This document shows positions 2,078 to 8,875 of a DNA stretch of 64,000 nt, one piece after another. Source of the DNA: Acinetobacter sp. NCu2D-2 (GTDB lineage Bacteria; Pseudomonadota; Gammaproteobacteria; Pseudomonadales; Moraxellaceae); assembly GCF_001647675.1 (NCBI RefSeq), contig NZ_CP015594.1, positions 310,001 to 374,000 on the forward strand. The letters are read 5' to 3'. Both the position numbers and the translations under genes were made by a program. Numbering within the stretch: the first letter of the stretch is position 1; each line of letters opens with the position of its first letter. The notes beneath the pieces are model-generated. The model made no database searches, had not been told where the DNA came from, and was given only the letters and a program-made list of their open reading frames with translations.

Positions 2078-3205
2078 ATGATTTGGATTGAGATTATTGC
2101 ATGCTTTGTCATTTGGCTCAGTTTTTGGTCATTGATCCCGCGAGATGAGTGGTGGTTCCGTGGAGCGGACTTTCCACGACTACAAATTTTAGCTTTAGGC
2201 TTTATTTCTTTAGCGTTTTTAATGTTCTGGAATGAGCCTTGGACAGTCGCTCGACAAACCATTTTCGTACTTTTAATTGCGGCTTTGGCTTATCAATTGA
2301 AAATGGTTTTACCTTATACCTTTATTTGGAAAAAACAGGTCAAAAAAGTCCGTGATGACGAATTAGATCCAAGTAAACAAATATCTCTCATTGTCTCGAA
2401 TGTGCTGACGCCAAATCAAAAGTATCATTTATTGATTGAACAAATCGAGAAGTATCAACCTGATTTGGTTTTAACTTTAGAAACTGACCAAACCTGGCAA
2501 AACGAACTTTCAGTGATTGAAAAGGATTATCCATATCGCGTGCCTGTCCCATTGGATAATCTTTATGGTATGCATCTCTACAGTAAACTTGAGCTTAAAG
2601 ACATCGAAGTTAAGTTTATTTTGAGTGATGAAATTCCATCAATTCATACCACTGTAATTTTGCCATGTGGTCAACCTGTGCAGCTTTATTGCTTACATCC
2701 AAAGCCACCAAGTCCAACCGAAGCCAAAGACTCAACCTTGCGTGATGCAGAATTATTAATTGTTGGTGATCAAATTAAAGATCTTGATGAAAGCTGTATC
2801 GTGATGGGGGACTTAAATGATGTGGCATGGTCGCGGACCACACGTTTATTTCAACGCATTAGTGGCTTATTAGATCCGCGTGTCGGACGCCATTATGTTA
2901 ATACCTTCCATGCCGATTATCCGTTGTTACGTTGGTCACTTGACCATGTGTTCCATAGTACTGACTTTGCCTTGGTAAAAATGGAACGACTGCCGCACGT
3001 CGGTTCTGATCATTTCCCAGTTTATGTGGTATTGCAAACTGGACGTAAGTTTGAACAAGTTCAGCAAGAGTTAGAACAAACCGATGCGGATGAAGAAGAA
3101 GCACAACAAGCTATTCAGGAAGGTATTGAAAAAGCTGAAAAAGAAGAGAAACAAGTAACCGATGAAATCGCGCAAGATTATAAGGATGGAACGAAATCAG
3201 TGTAG
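2078..3205 (+). CDS. Membrane-anchored endonuclease/exonuclease/phosphatase-fold protein
   Basis: The product has 375 residues. Two or three hydrophobic segments occupy residues 1-85 (about 3-20, 36-51 and 61-80). A domain of the endonuclease/exonuclease/phosphatase superfamily follows. Its metal and catalytic signature is visible in order: Asn in SNVLTPN (108), Glu in TLETDQ (135), GDLND (about 245), SLDHVF, and the C-terminal GSDHFPV (about 310). The last 50 residues are rich in Glu, Lys and Gln and probably form a coiled coil. In this superfamily such proteins cleave phosphodiesters in DNA or lipids; the substrate here is unknown. The ribosome site is GAGG before the ATG. The gene stands alone, followed directly by the candidate regulatory RNA at 3294. 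Confidence 0.85.
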   Translation: MIWIEIIACFVIWLSFWSLIPRDEWWFRGADFPRLQILALGFISLAFLMFWNEPWTVARQTIFVLLIAALAYQLKMVLPYTFIWKKQVKKVRDDELDPSKQISLIVSNVLTPNQKYHLLIEQIEKYQPDLVLTLETDQTWQNELSVIEKDYPYRVPVPLDNLYGMHLYSKLELKDIEVKFILSDEIPSIHTTVILPCGQPVQLYCLHPKPPSPTEAKDSTLRDAELLIVGDQIKDLDESCIVMGDLNDVAWSRTTRLFQRISGLLDPRVGRHYVNTFHADYPLLRWSLDHVFHSTDFALVKMERLPHVGSDHFPVYVVLQTGRKFEQVQQELEQTDADEEEAQQAIQEGIEKAEKEEKQVTDEIAQDYKDGTKSV

Positions 3206-3219
3206 ATTCATGAGAAAAG

Positions 3220-3237
3220 TGTACGAAATAGCTTACA
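3220..3237 (+). promoter_or_regulatory. GacA-type upstream activating sequence
   Basis: The sequence TGTACG-AAATAG-CTTACA matches the Pseudomonas GacA box TGTAAG-N6-CTTACA at 11 of 12 defined bases, with the exact six-base spacer. Its centre lies about 65 bp upstream of the start I predict for the RNA at 3294, downstream of a -10-like TATTCT at 3282-3287. No good -35 is present, as expected for an activator-dependent promoter. The match is seen directly; binding by GacA is inferred. Confidence 0.7.
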
Positions 3238-3293
3238 TTGCTTTCGTCCAATAGCGGATAGTCAGCACAAAGTAAAGCCCGTATTCTAGACTC

Positions 3294-3478
3294 ATCAGCA
3301 CAGGGAGTCGCGAAAGGATATTCGCATAAGGAAGACGAAGCTGAAGTGAAACATCATGGAGATGATGCTGACAGGGAAAGCAAATAAGTAAAGAATAAGT
3401 TTGAAAGCACAAACCTCATTAGCCCGAGTTTTACAGGATGTAGAACTCGGGTTAAATTATTTAAGGGTGTTATTTTTT
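3294..3478 (+). ncRNA. Candidate RsmX/Y/Z-CsrB-like small RNA that would bind CsrA/RsmA
   Basis: This is an intergenic, non-coding stretch of about 160-185 nt with six GGA motifs (3304-3306, 3316-3318, 3330-3332, 3358-3360, 3375-3377 and 3436-3438). Three of them are displayed in hairpin loops. Stem GCGAA/TTCGC (3310-3314 with 3321-3325) has loop AGGATA. Stem CATCAT/ATGATG (3352-3357 with 3362-3367) has loop GGAG. A 13-15 bp stem (3421-3435 with 3439-3453) has loop GGA flanked by ACA and TGT, close to the CsrA SELEX consensus ACARGGAUGU. The last hairpin is followed by a T-rich tract ending in TTATTTTTT and probably ends the transcript. Known RNAs of this kind sequester CsrA/RsmA and are switched on by GacS/GacA. 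The ends, and which Csr-type RNA this most resembles, are inferred. Confidence 0.72.
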
Positions 3479-3511
3479 AAGACCCAGTCTTATACCCATT
3501 ATGCAAATCAA

Positions 3512-4447
3512 TTAATAAATTTTTTCAAAACCTTCAGGCCGTGTTTTAAAGCGGCGGTGGAACCACATATATTGGGTTGGAGCGATACGTAACTGACGTT
3601 CAATAATCAGATTCACACGTGTTGCATCATCAAGTTCATCATCACTTGGTAAATTCTCGACAGGTGGTTCAATCAGTACATGATACTTTGGATCAGCAAT
3701 ATCACCATGACGATAAAAATACAAAGGAATGGCTGCTGCTTTGGTCATTTTGAGTAAACGTCGATGAGCCGTTACTGTTGCAGCAGGCACACCAAAGAAT
3801 GGCGCCATTACCCCTTGTTTAAGCCCAAAATCCTGATCGGGACTGTACCAAATCGGGTGACCGTCTTTTAATTTTCGAACCAAACCACGCATGTCATCAT
3901 GATCAATTTGATTAGCATAAATGGTGGCGCGGCAACGATAAATCAACATATCGAGTAATGGGTTGTTTTGGGGGCGATACACCACATCTGGCTCGAAATA
4001 TTGTGCACACAAATATCCACCTGCATCGAGCAAAGTCGAATGAGTACCGAGTAAAAGCATACCTTTACCTTCGGCTTGTGCTTGATGGATATATTCTAAT
4101 CCTTCAATGCTGACACGACCTTTAAACCATTTTGGGCTATACCATGCATTGAGTGTCTCAAATACACCAATCATTTGATCGACAAAGACTTGACGCGCAT
4201 TGGCTTCAACTTCAGCCGGTGACCATTCAGGAAAGCACACTTCAAGATTACGAAGTGTTGTTTCACGGCGTGATTTCAGCGCTTTAAAACAGATATTGCC
4301 TAAAGCCTGTCCTAAGCGATATTGCAGTGCCCAAGGTAAAATTGCCAAAATCATCAGACATACAATTCCAATCCAAATGCCCCAATATTGCGGAAGCAAG
4401 AAAGACCATTGGAATTCACCGGGTTTATATTCGGGCTGATGACTCAT
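3512..4447 (-). CDS. lpxL: Lipid A lauroyl-type acyltransferase (LpxL/HtrB family)
   Basis: This is an inner-membrane acyltransferase that moves an acyl chain from acyl-ACP onto Kdo-lipid IVA late in lipid A synthesis. The product of 311 residues has the family's usual length. One membrane anchor lies at about residues 20-40 (after SFLLPQYWGIW). The catalytic HX4D motif is HSTLLD (His136 to Asp141). A second conserved block, YSPDQDFG, lies near residue 210. The N-terminal QYWGIW pattern resembles HtrB/LpxL more than LpxM, but the two families are close and LpxM cannot be fully excluded. The gene is on the minus strand and convergent with the candidate sRNA. Confidence 0.88.
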   Translation of the reverse strand: MSHQPEYKPGEFQWSFLLPQYWGIWIGIVCLMILAILPWALQYRLGQALGNICFKALKSRRETTLRNLEVCFPEWSPAEVEANARQVFVDQMIGVFETLNAWYSPKWFKGRVSIEGLEYIHQAQAEGKGMLLLGTHSTLLDAGGYLCAQYFEPDVVYRPQNNPLLDMLIYRCRATIYANQIDHDDMRGLVRKLKDGHPIWYSPDQDFGLKQGVMAPFFGVPAATVTAHRRLLKMTKAAAIPLYFYRHGDIADPKYHVLIEPPVENLPSDDELDDATRVNLIIERQLRIAPTQYMWFHRRFKTRPEGFEKIY

Positions 4448-7921: not shown

Positions 7922-8875
7922 ATGAAGAAAATATTGCTATTAGATATAGAGAACCTGCCTAAAACTGAAACTGAACTTTTAAAATATTGCTCACAATATA
8001 ATTATATATATTTGGTTTATGCAAAAACTCCTTCTGGTTTTAGTTTGGATGGAGTGGTAAAACTAGCACCATTTATTTCATCTGGAAAATTAAAAGTTTT
8101 AAAGATGCCGAAAGTGGGTAAAGATGCAGCTGATTTCGGTCTGACATTTATCGCTGGGCAGCTCTCAACGCAATTTAAATCTAGTGATGTTGTCTTTGAA
8201 GTTATGTCGAATGATCATTCGATGGAATATGTCGTAGATCTTTTAAAAATAGCTAAATTTCAAGCAAATTTGATTTCAAATAAACCTTTAGTTACACCAC
8301 AAATAGTAAAAGAAATTAAGTCAGAAATAAATGTTGACTCTCTAATCTATCAATATTGTGAATATTTAATTAAACAAGGTTCAAGACCATCAAAATTAGA
8401 TAGTTTAATTAATTCACTTAAGGCAATACTTAAGGTTGAAGAGGATGTAGCAAGAGTATTAGTAGAATTATTGAAAAAAAATAAAATTATTAAGTTTGAA
8501 AATAATAAACCTAATTATCAAGATACTGTTTTGCAAAGTTATCTGAAACAAAAGAATATTACGGCTGAAACGGCTGAAACGGCTGAAACGGCTGAAACGG
8601 CTGAAACGGCTGAAACGGCTGAAACGGCTGAAACGGCTGAAAATATAGGATATAAATTAGATCAGAAACTTTCAAATATACGCTTACGGCTGATGCCTTT
8701 TTTAAATGTAATTCCTGAAAAAAGACCAAAATATTTAGCGAGTTTTGAAGTGCTATTGGAAAAATGTGTTCCTAAAGAACAGGTTTCTGAAACTTTAGAG
8801 TTATTAATTAAGTCTTGCTTAATTAGTGTGCATAAAAGAGAAATTACTTATAGTCCACAGCTTTTTGGAAACTAA
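7922..8875 (+). CDS. PIN-like domain protein with winged-helix-like regions, copy 2, repeat-containing
   Basis: This is a paralogue of the preceding gene, 20 bp downstream with a good GAGGG ribosome site, so probably the same operon. It has 317 residues. The PIN/NYN-like domain has acidic residues at the expected places: ILLLDIEN (Asp8, Glu10, Asn11), KDAADF (Asp68, Asp71) and SNDHSME (Asp98). A winged-helix-like region follows (about 145-205), then nine TAE tripeptides encoded by a perfect 9-bp tandem repeat, then a second winged-helix-like region (about 240-315). The gene is clearly more AT-rich than its neighbours and uses AAA/TTA/ATA codons heavily, which suggests different ancestry or relaxed selection. 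By analogy with NYN-winged-helix proteins an RNA-related role is possible but unproven. Confidence 0.78.
   Translation: MKKILLLDIENLPKTETELLKYCSQYNYIYLVYAKTPSGFSLDGVVKLAPFISSGKLKVLKMPKVGKDAADFGLTFIAGQLSTQFKSSDVVFEVMSNDHSMEYVVDLLKIAKFQANLISNKPLVTPQIVKEIKSEINVDSLIYQYCEYLIKQGSRPSKLDSLINSLKAILKVEEDVARVLVELLKKNKIIKFENNKPNYQDTVLQSYLKQKNITAETAETAETAETAETAETAETAETAENIGYKLDQKLSNIRLRLMPFLNVIPEKRPKYLASFEVLLEKCVPKEQVSETLELLIKSCLISVHKREITYSPQLFGN
8561..8641 (+). repeat. Tandem repeat, 9 perfect copies of a 9-bp unit
   Basis: Nine uninterrupted copies of ACGGCTGAA encode nine Thr-Ala-Glu units inside the gene at 7922-8875. The unit is a multiple of three, so slippage would change linker length without breaking the frame. 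The repeat is GC-richer than the AT-rich gene around it. Confidence 0.97.

What the first reader, a model, noticed from the sequence alone, without database searches (positions are those of the whole stretch)
3206..3478. Candidate Gac/Rsm small RNA: GacA box plus six GGA motifs in an Acinetobacter intergenic region
A nearly perfect GacA upstream activating sequence (TGTACG-N6-CTTACA, 11 of 12 bases, correct spacer) sits about 65 bp before a stretch with six GGA motifs. Two occupy the loops of perfect short hairpins (loops AGGATA and GGAG). A third fills the loop of a 13-15 bp terminal stem with flanks ACA/TGT, matching the CsrA SELEX core. Protein-coding signals are absent, and the transcript would end before convergent lpxL. 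This is the combination that defines RsmX/Y/Z in pseudomonads. I do not know of such an RNA described at this locus, and it would make CsrA activity here switchable by GacS/GacA.
Basis: partly seen in the sequence, partly recalled or inferred. Interest (0 to 1): 0.92.

Follow-up and report, generated by a model that had tools for sequence, protein, structure and literature searches.

The report
GacA-box CsrA-sponge RNA in Acinetobacter
Between two ordinary genes this Acinetobacter chromosome carries a conserved small-RNA gene that looks built to be switched on by the GacS/GacA sensor system and to soak up the global regulator CsrA; no experiment has yet shown it.

Summary
Window 3220-3237 is a near-consensus GacA box; 45 bp after it comes a -10-like TATTCT, then an RNA gene of about 160 nt (about 3294-3456) with six GGA motifs, three in hairpin loops, ending in a terminator whose tip reads ACA-GGA-TGT. 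A covariance model built without the box finds the RNA in 146 of 155 Acinetobacter genomes and in three other genera of the family. Of 26 model-found loci tested (16 in Acinetobacter that BLAST had missed, 10 outside the genus), 24 carry the box with at most 2 mismatches, 72-73 nt upstream of the model start; random stretches do so at 0.3%. Stems covary. No Rfam sRNA family matches. The genome encodes CsrA and a GacA-like regulator. Best reading: a Gac/Rsm CsrA-sequestering sRNA, a new member of a known kind. CsrA sRNAs were predicted in Acinetobacter before; two printed loci are not this one, the 2006 list could not be read. The genome also holds at least four short RsmX/Y/Z-like RNAs, whose relatives sit on many Acinetobacter plasmids. 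Transcription, GacA control and CsrA binding are untested.

The parts
3220..3237 (+). GacA-type upstream activating box TGTACG-AAATAG-CTTACA
   Evidence: 1 mismatch to TGTAAG-N6-CTTACA; at the aligned place all 117 distinct BLAST-found loci have at most 3 mismatches, 115 at most 2
3282..3287 (+). -10-like hexamer TATTCT, no -35 seen; putative start about 3293-3295, box centre about -65
   Evidence: read; conserved columns; the simple sigma-70 scan did not list it. Inferred, no start-site data
3294..3456 (+). small RNA gene, about 160 nt
   Evidence: covariance-model hit 3293-3453, 150 bits (this sequence is in the model); fold z -5.1
3295..3344 (+). closing helix TCAGC (3295-3299) / GCTGA (3340-3344) around hairpin 2; one pair alternates A-U, G-U and G-C
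3304..3306 (+). GGA 1, unpaired
   Evidence: GGA in 48 of 51 aligned rows
3310..3325 (+). hairpin GCGAA-AGGATA-TTCGC, GGA 2 in the loop
   Evidence: GGA in 43 of 51 rows at these columns, other rows look shifted by a base; 4 of 5 pairs with changes on both sides
3330..3332 (+). GGA 3, unpaired (AAGGAAG)
   Evidence: GGA in 50 of 51 rows
3352..3367 (+). hairpin CATCAT-GGAG-ATGATG, GGA 4 in the loop
   Evidence: GGA in 51 of 51 rows
3375..3377 (+). GGA 5, in a short variable stem-loop
   Evidence: GGA in 46 of 51 rows at the aligned columns; stem weak, 60% of cells paired
3403..3419 (+). conserved unpaired stretch GAAAGCACAAACCTCAT, function unknown
   Evidence: a related stretch in four loci of another genus
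3419..3455 (+). terminator stem with ACA-GGA-TGT at its tip, GGA 6
   Evidence: terminator scan; GGA in 50 of 51 rows, 8 of 13 pairs with changes on both sides
2078..3205 (+). upstream neighbour: endonuclease/exonuclease/phosphatase family protein (EEP)
   Evidence: PF03372, E 6e-34; no NCBIfam match
3512..4447 (-). convergent neighbour: LpxL/HtrB-like lipid A acyltransferase
   Evidence: TIGR02207 293.5 bits (cut-off 297.8), PF03279

Best explanation
The stretch is a stand-alone small-RNA gene of the Gac/Rsm (CsrB/RsmXYZ) type. Phosphorylated GacA binds the palindromic box centred about 65 bp upstream and activates a promoter with a -10 but no evident -35 element. The RNA of about 160 nt presents six GGA sites, three of them in hairpin loops, to CsrA dimers and takes CsrA away from its mRNA targets, so that GacS/GacA signals lower CsrA activity. 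Shown here: the sequence elements, their conservation, the covariation, the fixed spacing, and the presence of CsrA and a GacA-like regulator. Inferred: transcription, GacA control, CsrA binding and the direction of the effect.
For: Model R1, built without the box, finds the RNA in 146 of 155 Acinetobacter genomes and in 7 genomes of three other genera. Box test on loci whose finding did not use the box: of 16 Acinetobacter loci missed by BLAST, 15 have a box with at most 2 mismatches 72-73 nt before the model start; of the 10 best loci outside the genus, 9 do; random 76-nt stretches of the window reach this at 0.27%, about half of that being the window's own box. In the 117 distinct BLAST-found loci the aligned box has 0, 1, 2 or 3 mismatches in 25, 74, 16 and 2. 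Structure: 90.9% of cells paired against 30-44% when slid; 20 of 32 pairs with changes on both sides, reached by 0 of 500 shuffles. GGA in the three loops in 43, 51 and 50 of 51 rows. Fold z -5.1. The asd-EEP neighbourhood is kept in four loci of genus g10. One CsrA and a GacA/UvrY-like regulator in 20 of 20 genomes tested. Five TGTAMG-N6-CKTACA boxes in the genome, 0 for the reversed control pattern; four of them precede GGA-bearing RNAs with terminators.
Against: No Rfam sRNA family matches; near the locus only three chance-level hits to miRNA and snoRNA families. The GacA match is below the NCBIfam equivalog cut-off (264-272 against 280 bits); GacS was not sought. Eight of 155 Acinetobacter genomes gave no credible hit although they have the GacA-like regulator. 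The terminator's T run is poor. A conserved unpaired stretch is not explained by CsrA titration. No expression or binding data were available.
Confidence: 0.86

Rival explanations
1. A base-pairing regulatory RNA under GacA control, in which the GGA-bearing loops are secondary and the conserved unpaired stretch GAAAGCACAACCTCAT is the working seed.
For: That stretch is among the most conserved parts; it is unpaired in the consensus structure and partly kept in another genus.
Against: The GGA sites are conserved too. An exact 10-base complement occurs once in the genome, within what reads as a coding repeat, not near a start codon. Only one 10-base complement was tried.
Confidence: 0.07
2. A 3'-UTR-derived or processed RNA of the upstream EEP gene, with the hairpin as that gene's terminator.
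For: It starts about 90 nt after the EEP stop on the same strand; EEP adjacency is common (29 of 30 loci).
Against: The conserved box and -10 at fixed spacing imply its own promoter. In L110, L290, L296 and L298 asd was found so close to the RNA that no room is left for EEP, and EEP was not found there.
Confidence: 0.04
3. A palindrome-rich intergenic spacer without function that resembles an sRNA by chance.
For: Single motifs do occur by chance: the box with 1 mismatch is reached in 14 of 100 shuffles of the window.
Against: Conservation, covariation and box spacing over many genomes.
Confidence: 0.01

Closest known systems
RsmX/RsmY/RsmZ of pseudomonads (Gac/Rsm sRNAs)
   Same: GacA box about 65 bp upstream, GGA in hairpin loops and single strands, intergenic, terminator (features of the known RNAs recalled)
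   Different: No Rfam match; own conserved architecture with a closing helix and an unpaired GAAAGCACAACCTCAT stretch
CsrB/CsrC of enterobacteria
   Same: Expected mode of action: multi-site CsrA titration (recalled)
   Different: CsrB is much longer with many more sites (recalled); no match
Short RsmX/Y/Z-like RNAs of the same genus (L123, L124, L125, L333 and plasmid copies)
   Same: Same kind of box about 71 nt upstream, GGA hairpins, terminator tip of the GACAGGATGTC type; L123 and L125 match Rfam RsmY weakly, below threshold (27.2 and 22.7 bits against 57)
   Different: About 120-135 nt with mostly four GGA (three in L125), several copies, also on plasmids; no sequence relation to the window RNA seen beyond motifs, though this was not tested formally
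Earlier predictions in A. baylyi ADP1 and A. baumannii (Kulkarni 2006; PMC5568370; table in PMC7366521)
   Same: Same functional class in the same genus
   Different: The two loci printed in PMC5568370 are not this one (gene orientation; distance to dnaA, under stated assumptions). The 2006 list was not readable

Membership tests
Gac/Rsm-type CsrA-sequestering sRNA (functional class) | GacA box at fixed distance upstream | tested here: met
Gac/Rsm-type CsrA-sequestering sRNA (functional class) | several GGA motifs, part of them in conserved hairpin loops | tested here: met
Gac/Rsm-type CsrA-sequestering sRNA (functional class) | non-coding, intergenic, own terminator | tested here: met
   terminator T run weak
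Gac/Rsm-type CsrA-sequestering sRNA (functional class) | host encodes CsrA and GacA | tested here: met
   CsrA; GacA-like best match, below the equivalog cut-off
Gac/Rsm-type CsrA-sequestering sRNA (functional class) | host encodes GacS | not tested
   not searched
Gac/Rsm-type CsrA-sequestering sRNA (functional class) | transcription depends on GacA | not testable with these tools
   needs RNA from wild type and gacA deletion
Gac/Rsm-type CsrA-sequestering sRNA (functional class) | RNA binds and titrates CsrA | not testable with these tools
   needs binding and epistasis tests
Rfam families RsmX, RsmY, PrrB_RsmZ, CsrB, CsrC | score above the family's gathering threshold | tested here: not met
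   no match in the window, none of these families in 2800-4000 at E up to 5, no match in 20 homologous loci at E up to 0.1

The most novel reading that the evidence does not exclude
This RNA is the fixed, single-copy chromosomal member of a two-tier Gac/Rsm system: a core RNA at the asd-EEP locus of the Moraxellaceae, with a conserved unpaired second module, plus a multi-copy family of short GacA-box CsrA sponges carried on chromosomes and on many Acinetobacter plasmids. Plasmids would then raise the host's CsrA-sponge dose whenever GacA is active.
Probability: 0.4. Interest if true: 0.8.

Novelty: new member of a known kind. Interest (0 to 1): 0.6.

Why it matters
GacSA is described as a global regulator in A. 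baumannii (674 genes) and CsrA as critical for growth (PMC5295007 and PMC12802169, passages read), but in what I could read the RNAs that would connect them are only predictions. This gives a defined, conserved candidate with exact coordinates that can be tested by deletion in a laboratory strain such as A. baylyi, where the locus is present. The plasmid-borne relatives raise the separate question whether plasmids tune the host's Gac/Rsm output.

Tried and rejected
Rfam at gathering and permissive thresholds: no sRNA family for the window RNA. RNAalifold on the MAFFT alignment gave two helices only; I wrote the other helices by hand from the sequences, so one search counts a structure derived from these sequences, on an alignment not fitted to it; several rows look misaligned in hairpin 2. 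Antisense target for the conserved stretch: one exact 10-base complement, not near a start codon, not pursued. The fifth box of the genome (L121, upstream of a probable rpsO) has few GGA motifs and was left open. The second R1 match, on the minus strand at the same place, I read as an echo of the terminator palindrome. In the nine Acinetobacter genomes without an R1 match I looked for boxes with a looser pattern: 39 places, but the reversed control pattern gave 19; 18 places came as loci, none of them with asd, EEP or lpxL, and 7 of the 18 with four or more GGA behind the box, among them copies of the short type (L317, L318, L327). So this did not find the missing RNAs. Literature: ten searches; in the rows listed (20 of 49, 20 of 43, 15 of 16) I saw no title or abstract describing an RNA at this locus or plasmid-borne Rsm RNAs in Acinetobacter. 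Supplementary files could not be read; the 2006 prediction paper and a 2018 A. baumannii transcriptome paper (recalled) are not held. Term searches only were made in PMC11472050, PMC12802169, PMC12646401, PMC6978653, PMC12609611, PMC9928087, PMC5295007 and PMC7366521; one section was read in PMC5568370.

Full report
What is there. The window is part of an Acinetobacter chromosome (G000:C1:310001-374000). Between a gene for an endonuclease/exonuclease/phosphatase family protein (EEP, 2078-3205, +) and a convergent LpxL/HtrB-like gene (3512-4447, -) lie 306 bp. Position 3220-3237 reads TGTACG-AAATAG-CTTACA, one mismatch from TGTAAG-N6-CTTACA, the only such match in 64 kb. A -10-like TATTCT lies at 3282-3287. 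From about 3294 the sequence can form a closing helix TCAGC/GCTGA, hairpins with AGGATA and GGAG loops, and a terminator stem with ACA-GGA-TGT at its tip; six GGA motifs lie in 3294-3456. The minimum-free-energy fold of the single sequence differs in the 5' part, pairing the closing helix's 5' strand with a later GCTGA; its centroid has the closing helix as named here.

Is it more than chance? Six GGA in 163 nt are at the 0.6% level for this window and the fold is 5.1 standard deviations better than shuffles. The decisive evidence is comparative. BLAST finds the stretch in 146 of 175 genomes of the genus, own genome included. I had loci from 119 of these genomes plus one extra short match (L115), which did not align and was dropped; 117 of the 119 sequences are distinct. 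In these 117 the aligned box has at most 3 mismatches (0: 25, 1: 74, 2: 16, 3: 2).

Box test without the box. From 51 representatives (A1) I built a covariance model of the RNA alone, without box or promoter (R1). In 328 genomes of the family it finds the RNA in 153: 146 Acinetobacter genomes and 7 genomes of three other genera. Nine same-genus rows stand at the head of the list without a match, so I take the genus count as 146 of 155. A laxer second pass over 25 chosen genomes recovered one of the nine (G082, E 3e-5) and gave further weak hits in other genera. I then looked upstream of 29 model-found loci. Of 16 Acinetobacter loci that BLAST had missed, 15 have a box with at most 2 mismatches 72-73 nt before the model start; the sixteenth (L298) has one at 22 nt. 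Of the 10 best loci outside the genus (one per genome, E up to 0.006), 9 have it at 72-73 nt; the tenth (L172) has one at 194 nt. The G082 locus (L173) has one at 67 nt. Two weak hits (L180, L182; E above 0.2) have none. Twelve further weak loci were not examined. Random 76-nt stretches of the window reach at most 2 mismatches in 0.27% of cases, about half of which are the window's own box.

Structure. On the structure-blind alignment A1, 90.9% of cells of the 32 named pairs are standard pairs, against 30-44% when the partner strand is slid; 20 pairs show changes on both sides, and none of 500 shuffles reaches this or the covariation score (1 of 500 reaches the number of pair types). One pair of the closing helix alternates A-U, G-U and G-C; the terminator tip alternates ACA/TGT and GCA/TGC around GGA. 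The structure was written from these sequences, so the share of paired cells is partly built in. GGA at the six sites is present in 48, 43, 50, 51, 46 and 50 of 51 rows. The stem around the fifth GGA is weak (60% of cells paired), as is the innermost pair of hairpin 2 (36 of 51 not paired).

Neighbourhood. In the 30 best loci of the genus (L132-L161), asd was found in 30 and EEP in 29 of the stretches held; the four loci of genus g10 have asd and EEP as well, L174 and L177 have EEP, and L172, L175, L176 and L178 show none of asd, EEP and lpxL within about 1.5 kb. In L110, L290, L296 and L298 asd lies next to the RNA with no room for EEP. So the RNA gene is an old resident of this locus, and it does not depend on EEP. 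In A. baylyi and A. baumannii lpxL lies some 3 kb further.

Partners. The genome has one CsrA. A GacA/UvrY-like regulator is present in 20 of 20 genomes tested, 264-272 bits, far above the next regulator (at most 118 bits) but below the equivalog cut-off of 280. The nine Acinetobacter genomes without an R1 match are among these 20, so loss of GacA does not explain them. GacS was not sought.

How it most likely works. By analogy with RsmX/Y/Z (recalled): GacA-P binds the box and activates the -10 promoter; the RNA offers GGA sites to CsrA and relieves its mRNA targets. Sequence elements and their conservation are shown here; transcription, activation and binding are inference.

Relation to known RNAs. 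No Rfam 15 sRNA family matches the window RNA or 20 homologous loci. By function it would belong to the Gac/Rsm sRNAs; by sequence it is not a member of a described Rfam family. CsrA sRNAs in Acinetobacter are not a new idea: the table in PMC7366521 (passage) lists [RsmX, RsmY, RsmZ] for A. baumannii with references to Kulkarni 2006 and Cerqueira 2014, and PMC5568370 (section 16) prints two loci in A. baylyi ADP1. I hold that those two are not this gene. At ACIAD2750/2751 the upstream gene faces away from the RNA, here EEP runs the same way. ACIAD0018/0019 lies at 25 kb, and in A. baylyi DSM 14961 no dnaA lies within 52 kb downstream of our locus; this assumes that ADP1 is collinear with the type strain and that its coordinates begin at dnaA (recalled). 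Whether the 2006 list holds this locus I could not see.

The wider family. Five TGTAMG-N6-CKTACA boxes occur in the genome. Besides the window locus, three (L123, L124, L125) precede short RNAs with GGA hairpins and a terminator with ACAGGATGT at its tip; a model of these and plasmid copies (R2) adds a fourth strong copy, L333. In the 19 Acinetobacter genomes I count 101 places of 60 bits or more, 0 to 9 per genome, median 5 (own genome 4). The 12 loci given there, one per genome, all have a box with at most 2 mismatches at 69-72 nt. BLAST with L123 matches 276 records of the plasmid collection, 275 of Acinetobacter, but only 8 cover 80% of the query; the collection also holds some records of chromosome size. 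All 15 plasmid loci that I looked at (L163, L164, L166, L299-L310) have a box with at most 3 mismatches, nearly always 70-71 nt before the RNA, and at least three GGA; in 8 of the 15 a RelE-type toxin gene is annotated next to or near it. This is a lead outside the finding and, if real, its most surprising part.

Open points. The unpaired stretch GAAAGCACAAACCTCAT (3403-3419) is highly conserved and unexplained. Eight of 155 Acinetobacter genomes lack a recognisable copy. The terminator's T run is poor.

Verdict. Observation confirmed, interpretation supported; a new member of a known kind, with good computational and no experimental support.

Noticed in passing
L123 (G000:C1:2597791), L124 (G000:C1:2666678, - strand), L125 (G000:C2:186541), L333 (G000:C2:159768, - strand): Four short RsmX/Y/Z-like RNAs with GacA-type boxes in the same genome; L123 and L125 match Rfam RsmY weakly, below threshold.
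   Followed up: partly
Plasmid records, e.g. NZ_CP059389.1 2605-2821, NC_010310.1 10614-10813, NZ_CP053099.1 8181-8254: Short RNAs with a GacA-type box and GGA hairpins on Acinetobacter plasmids: BLAST matches in 276 collection records; 15 of 15 inspected have the box (at most 3 mismatches); 8 of the 15 lie near a RelE-type toxin gene.
   Followed up: partly
window 3403-3419: Highly conserved unpaired stretch between the GGA array and the terminator; no target found with one 10-base complement.
   Followed up: partly
L121 (G000:C1:222964): A box of the same pattern upstream of a probable rpsO, followed by few GGA motifs and a terminator; unclear whether a degenerate relative.
   Followed up: no
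window 7922-8875: PIN-domain protein (PF18475) with a run of Glu-Thr-Ala repeats.
   Followed up: no
NZ_CP033846.1 3019-3097 (L309): A short GacA-box RNA of the Acinetobacter type on a plasmid recorded from Klebsiella oxytoca.
   Followed up: no
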